From Hyphomicrobiaceae bacterium (GTDB lineage: Bacteria > Pseudomonadota > Alphaproteobacteria > Rhizobiales > Hyphomicrobiaceae), in NCBI GenBank assembly GCA_022844275.1, contig JALHMB010000002.1, forward strand, positions 496,001 to 560,000: 64,000 bases of DNA, written 5' to 3'. Positions 18,809-22,808 of the stretch are shown in pieces. Positions within the stretch are counted from its first letter, which is position 1; each line of letters starts with the position of its first letter. The translations under genes were made by a program, and so were the position numbers. Under the pieces are notes generated by a model. That model had not been told where the DNA came from, searched no databases, and saw only the letters and a list, made by a program, of their open reading frames with translations.

Positions 18809-20008
18809 CTAGGCGCAGCAGCGAAGCTGCTCGTCCGCGCGTTCTGCCACCCGTTTGGCGACCATGAGGCCGACGCCGACTGTACGTGCGGCGTGCTCTG
18901 CTGCTTCCGCAAGCAAAGTTTCGGCTTCACGCGTGGCCTCGGCGAGCGTGCATGGGCGCATCAGAATGCTGTGGTAGGCCGCGATGCCGTGCGCGAGGTT
19001 CGCGTGCGCATCGCGACCGATGCAGCCGGCCAGCGCAATGACCGGAATGCCGAACGCCTCGGCGCGACGGCCGACCTCGGCGGGGATCTTGCCGTAGGGA
19101 GTCTGGCCGTCGAGGCTGCCTTCGGCGGTGAGCACGAGATCGGCCTCGGCGAGCAGCCGATCGAAGCTTGTGTAGCGCATGACGAGATCGTATCGCGGAT
19201 GGAGCGTGGCGCCGCAGATGGCTGCCAGCCCGGCGCCGATGCCGCCCGAAGCGCCTGCCCCCTCCAGGCCGGCGACATCGACGCCGGTTGCCGCCTCGAG
19301 GTGCACCGCATAGTTCGTGAGCGCCCACTCCAGGCCGGCAATCTGCTCGGGGCGCGCGCCCTTCTGCGGACCATAGATCCCCGTGACGCCTCGTGCGCCG
19401 AGCAGAGCATTGTGCGGGTTCACAGCGGCGTCGATCCGAACGCGAGCGAGGCGCGGATCGAGGCCGCTGAGATCGATGCAGGCAATCTCGGCCAGTGCCG
19501 CACATCCGCGGCCGATCTCACGGCCGTGGCGATCGAGAAGGCGTGCGCCCAGAGCCTGCGCCATGCCGGCGCCACCATCGTTCACGCCGCTGTCGCCGCA
19601 ACCGACGATGATCCGCTCGGCGCCGCGGTCGAGTGCCGCGCGCACCAGTCCGCCAACACCGAAGCTTGTGGTCAGCGCTGGGTCGCGCTGGCCTTCTGGA
19701 ACCAGGCCGAGGCCGGCGGCCGCAGCGATCTCGATCACGGCCGTGCGCACGGGCTCACGCCCGAGAAAGCCGATATGTGCGGTAGTGGGTGCACCCGTCG
19801 GGCCGGTCACCGTCACGCTTTCGAGGCTCCCGTGCGTCGCCTGAACGAGGGCGGCCGTGAAGCCCTCGCCGCCGTCGACAATCGGCGTCTTGAGGATGCG
19901 GGCCGTCGGCCATGCGCAACGCACGCCCGTGGCCATGGCTTCGGCCGCCTCGCGTGCGGAGAGGCATTCTTTCAACCCGCTCGGGGCAATGAGGACGGTG
20001 AGGGACAT
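18809..20008 (-). CDS. Glycerate 2-kinase (GarK/GlxK type)
   Basis: A 399-residue kinase that phosphorylates D-glycerate with ATP, giving 2-phosphoglycerate. Family landmarks are IAPSGLKECLSAREAAEAM, PIVDGGEGF, VIEIAAAAGLGLVP, IIVGCGDSGVNDGGAGMAQALG, FLAEADLVLTAEGSLDGQT (written RLLAEADL here), and VIALAGCIG. Length is normal for the family (about 380-400). It links glycerate or glyoxylate metabolism to lower glycolysis, which could cooperate with the PPDK encoded nearby. Gene is monocistronic; its 5' side faces the anti-sigma gene's 3' end. Confidence 0.93.
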   Translation of the reverse strand: MSLTVLIAPSGLKECLSAREAAEAMATGVRCAWPTARILKTPIVDGGEGFTAALVQATHGSLESVTVTGPTGAPTTAHIGFLGREPVRTAVIEIAAAAGLGLVPEGQRDPALTTSFGVGGLVRAALDRGAERIIVGCGDSGVNDGGAGMAQALGARLLDRHGREIGRGCAALAEIACIDLSGLDPRLARVRIDAAVNPHNALLGARGVTGIYGPQKGARPEQIAGLEWALTNYAVHLEAATGVDVAGLEGAGASGGIGAGLAAICGATLHPRYDLVMRYTSFDRLLAEADLVLTAEGSLDGQTPYGKIPAEVGRRAEAFGIPVIALAGCIGRDAHANLAHGIAAYHSILMRPCTLAEATREAETLLAEAAEHAARTVGVGLMVAKRVAERADEQLRCCA

Positions 20009-20098
20009 CGCGTTCGGGTTCCGCTCTGATGGCGTTGCACCATCAGGGAACGCCCGGTCTTTGGGCCTATTCCCGCCTCTCGAAGAAATTTTGAGCGC

Positions 20099-20878
20099 TT
20101 AGCGCCAGCCCTGGCGCATGAGGTTCTGCTCCTCATCAGCTGAGAGCGTCTGGGTCGCCCCAAGGAGGGCAAGCAGACCGTCGAGTACGTCCTTCTCATC
20201 GCTGCCCGAGGGGACGTAGCCGGGTTTGCTCGGTGCCGCCGAGGCCGCGATCCGAGCCGTACCTTCGACCATCCAATCACCATTCGCAGGATCGCGACAG
20301 GCGACGCCGGCAAGCTGCGGCTGCATGGCCTGATCGAGCGCTTCGACCTCGCGGCAGATGCGCGCCTTGCGATCACGGAAGGTCGCAACGATCATCAGGT
20401 GATCTGCGCCCTCGGTGGCGCGGCGGGCGAGGGTTACTGGCGTTCCGCTAGGCTTCGTCTCGAGCACTTCGGCGAGCGGGCTCGCCTTGGGGACCGGTCC
20501 GAGCGCGATGGCGTGCTCAGTCGGAAGCTGTTGGAGGAATTGCGTCGCCGCTACCCCAAGCACGAGCAGGACGCTTGCTGCCAGCGGCAGCGCGGTGCGC
20601 CATGGCGAAGGTCGCGGCTTCCTGGCCTGTGCGAAGTCTACAACATTCACACCGCGCGTCTCGGCTCCGAGGACCGTCCGCACGAGCTGTTCCGGCACGG
20701 GCTCTGTCATGACGTCAGTGAAAGCTACACGTGAGAGTTCAGCCGTGCGCCGGAACTCGGCGACGATCGCCCGTGCCTCAGCATCATGTTCGAGTGCGGA
20801 AGCAACCTGTGCGGCCTCGGCTTCTGGTAGCGCACCGTCGGCATAGGCCATGAGCGTTTCGTCCGTGAGACGGGTCAT
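20099..20878 (-). CDS. Anti-sigma factor, single membrane span
   Basis: A 259-residue protein starting at the ATG at 20878, which overlaps the sigma gene stop as ATGA, so the pair is coupled. The N-terminal region (LTDETLMAYADGALPEAEAAQVASAL, then EARAIVAEFRRT) is the cytoplasmic anti-sigma fold. It has no His-x3-Cys-x2-Cys zinc motif, so it is not a ZAS-type redox sensor. One membrane segment lies at about residues 92-112 (LPLAASVLLVLGVAATQF), followed by a periplasmic domain of about 140 residues. It should hold the adjacent ECF sigma at the membrane until an envelope signal acts. The divergent secreted protease is one possible effector. Confidence 0.85.
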   Translation of the reverse strand: MTRLTDETLMAYADGALPEAEAAQVASALEHDAEARAIVAEFRRTAELSRVAFTDVMTEPVPEQLVRTVLGAETRGVNVVDFAQARKPRPSPWRTALPLAASVLLVLGVAATQFLQQLPTEHAIALGPVPKASPLAEVLETKPSGTPVTLARRATEGADHLMIVATFRDRKARICREVEALDQAMQPQLAGVACRDPANGDWMVEGTARIAASAAPSKPGYVPSGSDEKDVLDGLLALLGATQTLSADEEQNLMRQGWR

Positions 20879-21417
20879 TGCGGCATTCCTTCTGCGTGTC
20901 CCGGCCCGGCTGATGGCGCATCGAGCGCGCGGGCGAGCTTTTTGCGTGCCCGCGAAAGGCGGCTCATGATCGTACCGATCGGCACGCCGAGCATGTTGGC
21001 GGCGTCCTGGTAGGAGAGGCCCTCGATTGTGATGAGCGCCAGGACCTCGCGCTGCTCGTGGGGGAGCTGCGCGATCTCGGCGCGCACGATGGCGAGGTCC
21101 GCTCGCGCCGCCGTCTGCTCGTGAATGCGCGCATCGCTCGGGAGGCTCTCGGCGAGGTCGGGCGTCAGATCGGCGTGCTGGCGCCGCTGCTGGCGCCGGG
21201 TGTGGTCGATGAAGGTTGTGCGCACGATCTGGAACATCCAACTGTCGAGCCGCGTGCCGGGCGTGAACTGCTCGAGACGGCCGAGCGCTTTCTCGCAGGC
21301 CGTCTGCAGCACGTCGTCGGCGAGATCGCGCGAACCCGCGAGCGCCAGGGCGAAACGCCGCAGGCGCGGCAGCAGCGCCACGATCTCATGACGAATATCG
21401 GTATCCGTGGCGTTCAT
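20875..21417 (-). CDS. ECF-type RNA polymerase sigma factor
   Basis: A 180-residue group IV sigma factor. Region 2 is visible as LPRLRRFALALAGSRDLADDVLQTACEKAL and DSWMFQIVRTTFIDHTRR, and region 4 as LPHEQREVLALITIEGLSYQDAANMLGVPIGTIMSRLSRARKKL. The ATG at 21417 is chosen because the longer frame runs back through its own promoter. Upstream, on this strand, GGAAT (21472-21468) and CGTT (21451-21448) are 16 bases apart, an ECF-type promoter suggesting autoregulation, with a leader of about 24 bases. It forms an operon with the anti-sigma gene. Confidence 0.93.
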   Translation of the reverse strand: MNATDTDIRHEIVALLPRLRRFALALAGSRDLADDVLQTACEKALGRLEQFTPGTRLDSWMFQIVRTTFIDHTRRQQRRQHADLTPDLAESLPSDARIHEQTAARADLAIVRAEIAQLPHEQREVLALITIEGLSYQDAANMLGVPIGTIMSRLSRARKKLARALDAPSAGPGHAEGMPQ

Positions 21418-21437: not shown

Positions 21438-21475
21438 TCGGGAATAGAACGCTGGTCGCGGCGTTACATTCCCGA
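21438..21475. promoter_or_regulatory. Palindromic, bidirectional ECF-type promoter
   Basis: TCGGGAATAGAACGC (21438-21452) and GCGTTACATTCCCGA (21461-21475) are inverted repeats, 13 of 15 positions matching, around an 8-base centre. Each strand therefore reads GGAAT, 16 bases, CGTT: plus strand 21441-21465 toward the subtilase gene (ATG 21540), minus strand 21472-21448 toward the sigma operon (ATG 21417). The -35/-10 elements match the GGAA(T/C)...CGTT type used by several alphaproteobacterial ECF sigmas. Recognition by this sigma is inferred. Confidence 0.75.
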
Positions 21476-21539: not shown

Positions 21540-22808
21540 ATGAAGGAGCAAAGCGTGCGCGATCTCACTTGGTTCAAGATGGTGCTTTTGGCCCTGATCC
21601 TTTCGCTCGGGCTGCCCGTGATAGCGCCGAGTCTGCTGCCAAACGGCGTCGCCCATGCTGACGACGACGACGACGACGACGACGATGATGATGATGCCGA
21701 CGACGACGATGACGATGACGACGATCGCCCCAGAGCCCGCCCGGAGTTCGTGATTGCAGGGCTGGATGATGCTGCGCGGGCGCGCTTGCGGGCGCGCGGC
21801 TTTCGCGTTGCCCGGGAGGCGCCGTCAAGTCTGATGCGCGGACAGATCTCGCGCGTCGAAGGCCCGCCCGGTCGCTCTGCCGCTTCGGCACTGCAACTCC
21901 TGCGATCGCTCGCACCGGGCGCACTCGCGGCCCGCAATGATCTTTTTCGCCGCTACGCGCTCTCGCGCTACCGCCCCATGGGTGAGCCCTGTCGTGAGCG
22001 CTGCGAGACCTTCGAGATCACGGCCTGGCGACCGGCGCTGATTTCCTGTGCGATCGCGCCGCGCATCGGCGTGATCGATACGCGCGTCGATACGAGCCAC
22101 CCAAGCCTTGCTGGTGCACAACTCACGACAACGACGGTTCGTCGGAAGGATCGACGCCCCTCGGATGCGGAGCACGGCACGGGTGTCGTGAGCCTTCTCG
22201 TCGGTCAACCCGGCACGACTATCGTCGGCGTACTTCCCCGTGCGCGCGTGCTTGCGGTCGATGCCTTCCACCGCGAAGGTAGTGGCGACTCTGCCGACGT
22301 CTTCGATCTCGTCGCGGCGCTCGATTGGCTCATGAATAATGGTGCGCGCGTCGTCAATCTGAGCTTCAGCGGACCGGCCAATCCAGTCATGGCCGAGGCT
22401 ATTGCGCGCGTGACGGCCCAGGGCGTGAGCGTCGTTGCTGCGGCTGGCCGACCGGATGGAGGCGCCTCGGGTTATCCGGCGCGCTACGATGGCGTACTCG
22501 CTGTTTCGGCAGTGGATGTACGCCTGCGGCCGTCGCGTCTCTCGAGCCGCGGCACGCATATTTCATTTGCGGCCCCGGGTGTCGGCATTGTCGTTGCCGC
22601 GCCGCGCGCGAGCCACAGACAAGTCGACGGCACGTCCTTCGCCGCGCCGTTCGTCACGGCGGCGGTTGCCATGAGCCTTGGTGAGAATGGCAGTGCTGCC
22701 GACGCTTCCGATCGCTTGCGCGCACAAGTGAAGGATCTCGGCGCGCCGGGTCGCGACCCTGTTTTCGGCTGGGGGCTGGTGCAGTTCCAGACGCCGCAAG
22801 GATGTTGA
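21540..22808 (+). CDS. Secreted S8 (subtilisin-like) serine protease with poly-Asp segment
   Basis: A 422-residue protein: a signal peptide (MVLLALILSLGLPVIA, ending near GVAHA), then about 23 residues that are nearly all Asp, encoded by GAC/GAT repeats, then a linker and a peptidase S8 domain. The triad is present: Asp180 in GVIDTRVDTSHP, His212 in EHGTGVVSLL and Ser366 in DGTSFAAPF. The oxyanion-hole Asn of the usual AAAGN motif appears replaced by Arg304 (AAAGRPDGG). The poly-Asp run could bind Ca2+ or act as a propeptide spacer. It is divergent from the ECF sigma/anti-sigma operon across a symmetric promoter, so it is a likely regulon member and perhaps part of signal processing. Confidence 0.92.
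   Translation: MKEQSVRDLTWFKMVLLALILSLGLPVIAPSLLPNGVAHADDDDDDDDDDDDADDDDDDDDDRPRARPEFVIAGLDDAARARLRARGFRVAREAPSSLMRGQISRVEGPPGRSAASALQLLRSLAPGALAARNDLFRRYALSRYRPMGEPCRERCETFEITAWRPALISCAIAPRIGVIDTRVDTSHPSLAGAQLTTTTVRRKDRRPSDAEHGTGVVSLLVGQPGTTIVGVLPRARVLAVDAFHREGSGDSADVFDLVAALDWLMNNGARVVNLSFSGPANPVMAEAIARVTAQGVSVVAAAGRPDGGASGYPARYDGVLAVSAVDVRLRPSRLSSRGTHISFAAPGVGIVVAAPRASHRQVDGTSFAAPFVTAAVAMSLGENGSAADASDRLRAQVKDLGAPGRDPVFGWGLVQFQTPQGC

What the first reader, a model, noticed from the sequence alone, without database searches (positions are those of the whole stretch)
21438..21475. Palindromic promoter drives an ECF sigma operon and a subtilase in opposite directions
Two 15-base arms (TCGGGAATAGAACGC and GCGTTACATTCCCGA) match at 13 positions, so each strand reads GGAAT, 16 bases, CGTT. 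One copy faces the sigma/anti-sigma operon with a leader of about 24 bases, the other the secreted poly-Asp subtilase with a leader of about 70. Sequence shows the symmetry. That both are used by this ECF sigma is inferred from the GGAAT/C...CGTT type of ECF promoter. A symmetric shared promoter would force competition or strict co-regulation, and the protease could act back on the anti-sigma factor.
Basis: partly seen in the sequence, partly recalled or inferred. Interest (0 to 1): 0.75.

Follow-up and report, generated by a model that had tools for sequence, protein, structure and literature searches.

The report
Interlocked two-way ECF sigma promoter
A short symmetric stretch of DNA appears to hold two copies of the same stress-type promoter locked into each other on opposite strands, so that one regulator would switch on either its own genes or a secreted protease at any one moment; relatives show the same two promoters at other distances, which makes it an unusual variant of a known arrangement.

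Summary
At 21441-21472 two GGAAT-N16-CGTT sites lie on opposite strands, fully interlocked (offset 7 bases). As a bare inverted repeat it is not rare; its weight comes from conservation. The three best subtilase matches in 60 relatives (G003, G002, and G014 of another genus) carry it too, with all 18 motif bases kept; between window and G014 the surrounding bases are not kept (7/14, 6/20, 5/20). The exact pattern is in 4 of 103 family genomes, always at this locus, and in none of 376 order genomes outside the family. The three genes match the ECF26 module of Sinorhizobium meliloti (RpoE6, EcfR6, serine protease SMa0142), where the protease is a measured RpoE6 target. In relatives the two promoters occur separated, abutting, sharing a -35, or crossed. 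Best reading: a bidirectional ECF26-type promoter driving sigma/anti-sigma one way and the subtilase the other, with mutually exclusive occupancy. Use of both promoters and any competition are inferred; no transcript data exist here. Protease feedback on the anti-sigma has no support, and this protease clade has lost the oxyanion-hole Asn. New variant of a known kind.

The parts
21441..21465 (+). Protease-facing ECF26-type promoter GGAATAGAACGCTGGTCGCGGCGTT (-35 21441-21445, -10 21462-21465), predicted start about 21474
   Evidence: start scaled from S. meliloti SMa0142
21448..21472 (-). Sigma-facing ECF26-type promoter GGAATGTAACGCCGCGACCAGCGTT (-35 21472-21468, -10 21451-21448), predicted start about 21439
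21438..21475 (.). Imperfect palindrome (13/15 arms, 8-base centre) made by the two interlocked promoters
20875..21417 (-). ECF sigma factor, ECF26-like (180 aa)
   Evidence: Pfam Sigma70_r2 and r4; 46% identity over 125 aa to the S. meliloti rpoE6 region
20099..20878 (-). Anti-sigma factor (259 aa), overlaps the sigma stop codon; one hydrophobic segment, no HxxxCxxC motif
   Evidence: sub-cutoff anti-sigma matches; hydropathy
21555..22808 (+). Secreted subtilase (peptidase S8) with a poly-Asp run after the likely signal peptide; GTG start preferred over ATG 21540
   Evidence: PF00082 5.4e-31; PDB subtilisin 7.4e-28; start from relatives; signal peptide judged by eye
20049..20073 (-). Third site of the same type, GGAATAGGCCCAAAGACCGGGCGTT, after the anti-sigma gene and about 40 bases before the glycerate kinase start
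   Evidence: a site also lies before glycerate kinase in L094 and L095 (17-base spacer in L095)
18809..20008 (-). Glycerate kinase, possible third target
   Evidence: PF02595 2.1e-126

Best explanation
The element is a bidirectional promoter for one ECF26-type sigma factor. Two complete promoters occupy the same 32 bases on opposite strands: each arm of the palindrome carries the -35 of one and the -10 of the other. The holoenzyme carrying this sigma can bind either way round but not both ways at once. One orientation transcribes the sigma and its anti-sigma (autoregulation), the other the secreted subtilase. Shown: sequence, geometry, conservation, and the same two promoters in other layouts in relatives. 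Inferred from S. meliloti: that this sigma uses them. Inferred from sigma-70 bidirectional promoters and from hrpL/hrpJ: that at high sigma activity the two directions compete, which would cap self-amplification and couple sigma and protease output; at low activity they would hardly interfere.
For: Interlocked sites on both strands. The three best subtilase matches in 60 relatives, found by protein search, all carry them, and all 18 motif bases are kept; window versus L102 (G014): motif 18/18, other bases inside the palindrome 7/14, 20-base flanks 6 and 5. The exact interlocked pattern occurs at no other place in 103 family genomes and in none of 376 order genomes outside the family. In relatives each gene has its own GGAATA-type site: of 59 divergent loci 30 have both, 10 the sigma side only, 14 the protease side only, 5 neither; motif chance rate 0.027 per shuffled region. 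The four interlocked loci form one group in the subtilase tree (92/79) and in the reduced sigma tree (60/81). S. meliloti pSymA has relatives of the three genes in the same layout; its protease promoter is RpoE6-dependent (PMC6180224, passages and section 7).
Against: No transcription data for this organism. The sigma-facing -35 reads GGAATG, not the consensus GGAATA, in 3 of 4 loci, so that side may be weak. In S. meliloti the rpoE6 promoter has RpoD/RpoH-like motifs according to the authors, so self-activation through an ECF26 promoter is not universal in this module; 14 of 59 divergent loci have a scored protease-facing site but no scored sigma-facing one, and 5 have neither. Single origin is weakly supported in the sigma tree (60/81), and the tree of all 53 rows needed two changes. 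The pattern searches cover only the offset of 7, not other overlaps.
Confidence: 0.78

Rival explanations
1. Only the protease-facing promoter belongs to this sigma; the sigma operon is read by a housekeeping or other promoter, and ECF26 holoenzyme bound at the protease promoter blocks it (negative autoregulation as in hrpL/hrpJ).
For: The protease side has the better score in the window genus (19.6 against 15.2-17.5). 14 of 59 divergent loci have only a protease-facing site, 24 to 47 bases before the sigma start. The mapped S. meliloti rpoE6 start overlaps the protease promoter and carries RpoD/RpoH-like motifs. HrpL holoenzyme at hrpJ represses hrpL (PMC5263251, abstract and passages).
Against: The sigma-facing GGAAT and CGTT are kept in all four loci while spacer and flanks drift, and 105 of 138 loci (40 of 59 divergent, 65 of 79 others) have a scored sigma-facing site. 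In G014 the sigma side scores better (19.6 against 15.9).
Confidence: 0.13
2. The palindrome is the operator of a dimeric DNA-binding regulator rather than two promoters.
For: Near-perfect dyad, 13/15 arms; divergent genes often share a regulator site (general knowledge).
Against: The bases kept from window to L102 are mainly the two promoters; among six neighbouring proteins scanned no DNA-binding regulator other than the sigma was found; in relatives the same elements stand apart as two promoters, which an operator would not predict.
Confidence: 0.05
3. The sites serve the general stress sigma EcfG (GGAAC-N16/17-CGTT, recalled) rather than the neighbouring ECF26 sigma.
For: Similar motif; 27 of 40 S. 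meliloti RpoE6 targets are shared with RpoE2 (section 7 read).
Against: All four loci have GGAAT, not GGAAC, on both strands; the S. meliloti table row for the protease lists RpoE6 (4.7 log2) and RpoE4 (0.7) only.
Confidence: 0.04

Closest known systems
ECF26 module of Sinorhizobium meliloti: rpoE6 - ecfR6 / SMa0142 (PMC6180224; passages, section 7 and part of Table 1 seen)
   Same: Sigma, downstream anti-sigma, divergent serine protease with a poly-Asp run; protease promoter GGAATA-N16-CGTT
   Different: There the mapped starts lie 9 bases apart with transcripts overlapping by 10 bases, and the rpoE6 promoter is not ECF26-like; here both promoters are ECF26-like and exactly interlocked
Sigma-70 bidirectional promoters of Warman, Grainger and colleagues (PMC12825309; abstract, introduction, discussion read)
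   Same: Pseudo-symmetric DNA that lets RNA polymerase bind in two orientations, one excluding the other
   Different: Those share one -10 element, starts most often 18, also 10 or 23 bases apart; here -35 and -10 are reciprocally nested, predicted starts about 35 apart, and an ECF sigma is the likely reader
hrpL/hrpJ of Pseudomonas syringae (PMC5263251; abstract and passages seen)
   Same: An ECF holoenzyme on a divergent target promoter affects expression of its own sigma gene
   Different: hrpL is sigma-54-dependent and repressed; here the sigma gene has its own ECF-type site

Membership tests
ECF26 sigma group | Sequence kinship to a named ECF26 member | tested here: met
   46% over 125 aa to the S. 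meliloti rpoE6 region; search with the S. medicae homologue finds the window sigma at 7.2e-46, 50% identity
ECF26 sigma group | Downstream anti-sigma with N-terminal domain, membrane segment, periplasmic C-terminus | tested here: met
   Overlapping gene with one strongly hydrophobic stretch (best 19-residue mean 2.02, near residue 97 of 259). Topology itself not tested; family matches are below cutoff
ECF26 sigma group | Divergent serine protease (context widely conserved in the group) | tested here: met
   S8 gene at 21555-22808; 59 of 138 loci with a related sigma have a divergent S8 gene
ECF26 sigma group | Promoter -35 GGAATA, -10 GT | tested here: met
   Protease side GGAATA/CGTT in 4 of 4; sigma side GGAATG/CGTT in 3 of 4, GGAATA in G014
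ECF26 sigma group | Assignment by the published ECF group profiles | not testable with these tools
   No ECF group models on hand; NCBIfam equivalog matches all lie below cutoff among the 25 shown
Bidirectional promoter (sigma-70 type) | Shared -10 with starts about 10, 18 or 23 bases apart | tested here: not met
   -10 elements are separate, 21448-21451 and 21462-21465; predicted starts about 35 apart
Bidirectional promoter (sigma-70 type) | Overlap that excludes two polymerases at once | tested here: inconclusive
   Geometry implies it; no occupancy data
Subtilase S8 | Asp, His, Ser catalytic residues | tested here: met
   Present in the window protein; D and H in 40 of 40 and S in 39 of 39 readable rows; oxyanion Asn is Arg

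The most novel reading that the evidence does not exclude
The spacing of the divergent sigma/protease promoter pair in the ECF26 module is itself the regulatory setting. Lineages step between separate, abutting (+9/+10), shared -35 (-10), fully interlocked (-31) and crossed layouts, turning plain co-activation into self-competition or self-occlusion of the sigma gene; the exact palindrome is the state in which one bound holoenzyme decides between amplifying the sigma and making the protease. Close pairs may also keep the same face of the helix (8 lineages from -31 to +30, resultant 0.83, simulated p 0.0016; the range was chosen after seeing the data, and all 22 lineages give p 0.60).
Probability: 0.3. 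Interest if true: 0.65.

Novelty: new variant of a known kind. Interest (0 to 1): 0.5.

Why it matters
Mutual exclusion at symmetric promoters has been studied for sigma-70 promoters. Here the likely reader of the symmetric promoter is the product of one of its own genes, so the choice of orientation links positive feedback to output. The natural series of spacings in relatives gives ready-made constructs to measure how promoter overlap changes an autoregulated switch.

Tried and rejected
Genome-wide regulon: 28 GGAAT-N16-CGTT places in the own genome against 5 for the reversed control. Three lie in the window; of the other 25 I fetched 20 and left 5 unseen. 18 of the 20 lie inside an open frame of at least 120 codons on one strand or the other (in such GC-rich DNA an open frame is no proof of a gene). 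No wider regulon is claimed.

Relic idea: that other lineages keep half of the interlocked pair (AACG at +7 in L147, L233, L234). Over 105 distinct sites outside the four loci, AACG is equally frequent at offsets 5, 6 and 7 (3 each), and no ATTCC follows any site. Rejected.

By hand I expect about 4 chance matches in 257 Gb; I did not look at those four loci.

Sigma tree with all 53 rows gave two changes for the interlocked group; it held four distant rows (L138, L142, L144, L145) and partial or long rows. Nine rows were dropped for (those four and L104, L125, L132, L134, L137). The subtilase tree used 37 of 38 rows (L104 left out).

Census: 139 loci read, L146 without a sigma. L163 and L164 were replaced by longer copies L209 and L208. 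L096 (contig end), L100 (S8 gene too far) and L170 (divergent by the tblastn rule) did not pass the S8 rule and are not among the 59. G107 could not be judged: its contigs end between sigma and subtilase (L104, L146). Several genomes give two loci. The loci come from searches at family, order and class level with different E-value limits and two queries plus 5 plasmid records, so the proportions are not a census of nature. The scoring matrix was trained on 34 sites, rebuilt the same way. One search used one value per lineage, collapsed by hand.

Literature: searches gave no paper whose title or shown abstract describes an interlocked or palindromic promoter pair read by an ECF sigma. Only this open-access library was searched. 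In PMC12825309 a term search for ECF, extracytoplasmic and alternative sigma gave nothing. PMC3511301 was seen as passages only.

Full report
What is there. The window comes from a relative of Hyphomicrobium: the named carriers of the same palindrome are Hyphomicrobiaceae and Hyphomicrobium records. At 21441-21465 on the plus strand and 21472-21448 on the minus strand lie two GGAAT-N16-CGTT sites. They overlap so that each arm of the palindrome holds the -35 of one promoter and the -10 of the other. To the left the minus-strand site faces an ECF sigma gene (20875-21417) and an overlapping anti-sigma gene (20099-20878). To the right the plus-strand site faces a secreted subtilase. As a mere inverted repeat it is unremarkable: 37 repeats of this quality occur in the window. 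The promoter pattern is not: one place in the genome, 4 of 103 family genomes, none of 376 order genomes outside the family, and no reversed-control match.

Conservation. A protein search with the subtilase over 60 relatives brought in the loci; the interlocked pair was then found in the three best matches, G003, G002 and G014. The next best (G023, G016, G031) lack it. G001 and G004, of the same genus, have no sigma match at 1e-30 and no subtilase match at 1e-40, only weaker S8 matches. From window to G014 the 18 motif bases are identical, while inner bases match 7 of 14 and the 20-base flanks 6 and 5. Within the genus the motif is 18/18 in all three comparisons, with inner bases 13, 9 and 9 of 14. 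So the two promoters are what is kept.

Relatives show the two promoters apart. A matrix made from 34 sigma-facing sites, interlocked loci left out, finds 0.027 sites per shuffled region and 1.59 per real region in 41 divergent loci. In the final set of 138 loci with a related sigma, 59 have a divergent S8 gene: 30 with both sites, 10 with the sigma-facing site only, 14 with the protease-facing site only, 5 with neither. Let d be the distance between the first bases of the two -35s, positive when they stand back to back. The 30 pairs are: 17 at +29 to +119, 4 at +9 or +10, 2 at -10 (L166, L168, sharing the palindromic -35 GGAATAATTCC), 4 at -31 (the interlocked ones), 1 at -63 and 2 at -118. 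No pair lies between +11 and +28. The four interlocked loci group together in both trees, with modest support (subtilase 92/79; sigma 60/81; two changes in the tree of all 53 rows). In the subtilase tree their sister pair is G016 and G031. G016 has separate sites at +34; G031 has only a scored sigma-facing site. This fits a move from separate to interlocked promoters, though the direction is inference.

Link to a studied system. PMC6180224 (passages, part of Table 1, section 7) places S. meliloti RpoE6 in ECF26, says its divergence from a serine protease gene is widely conserved in the group, reports the protease SMa0142 as a prominent RpoE6 target, and gives its start after GGAATA-N16-CGTT. 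I found both published promoter sequences on pSymA beside relatives of all three genes. There the two starts, printed in lower case and so found by both of the paper's methods, lie 9 bases apart on opposite strands. The promoters therefore overlap there too, but the authors describe the rpoE6 promoter as RpoD/RpoH-like. The parts I read do not discuss the overlap.

How it probably works. The sigma, released from its membrane anti-sigma, forms holoenzyme that reads the element in either orientation. Because the sites cover each other, one polymerase at a time can be there. PMC12825309 (abstract, introduction, discussion; [quoted passage not shown] PMC5263251 (abstract, passages) reports an ECF holoenzyme on a divergent target promoter lowering expression of its own sigma gene. 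By analogy the element should behave as two independent weak promoters at low sigma activity and as a competition between self-amplification and output at high activity. This step is inference. The protease side scores better in the window genus, the sigma side in G014, so the bias may differ between species.

Protease. It has the Asp, His and Ser of subtilases, but the oxyanion-hole Asn is Arg. The same position is R, K, P or T in all 8 readable members of its subtilase clade (window, L094, L095, L100, L101, L102, L105, L146; L098 is cut short) and N in the other 30 proteins compared, S. meliloti SMa0142 among them, and in subtilisin. Its catalytic power is therefore open, which weakens the idea that it cuts the anti-sigma.

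Verdict. It is a new variant of a known module and works like, without being a member of, the sigma-70 bidirectional promoters.

Noticed in passing
window 21555-22808; relatives L094, L095, L100, L101, L102, L105, L146: This subtilase clade keeps Asp, His and Ser but has lost the oxyanion-hole Asn (R, K, P or T instead), whereas the 30 other proteins compared keep it.
   Followed up: partly
L166, L168: In another family the two divergent promoters share one palindromic -35, GGAATAATTCC (d -10): a second symmetric solution at the same gene pair.
   Followed up: partly
window 20049-20073 (-): A third site of the same type before glycerate kinase; sites lie there also in L094 and L095.
   Followed up: partly
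window 21540-21557: The subtilase start is probably GTG 21555, not ATG 21540.
   Followed up: yes
L230 3530-3539: The published S. meliloti rpoE6 and SMa0142 start sites imply transcripts that overlap by 10 bases, so the promoters overlap there too.
   Followed up: partly
L104, L146 (G107): Assembly contigs end on either side of the sigma/subtilase gap, so its promoter layout is unknown.
   Followed up: no
window 21660-21730; L094, L095, L102, L230: A poly-Asp run follows the likely signal peptide of the subtilase; an acidic run of 5 or more is seen in 5 of 38 family sequences in the first 110 residues, and in S. meliloti SMa0142; function unknown.
   Followed up: no
L152, L153, L155: Crossed promoter pairs (d -118, -63), where the two predicted transcripts would overlap antisense.
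   Followed up: no
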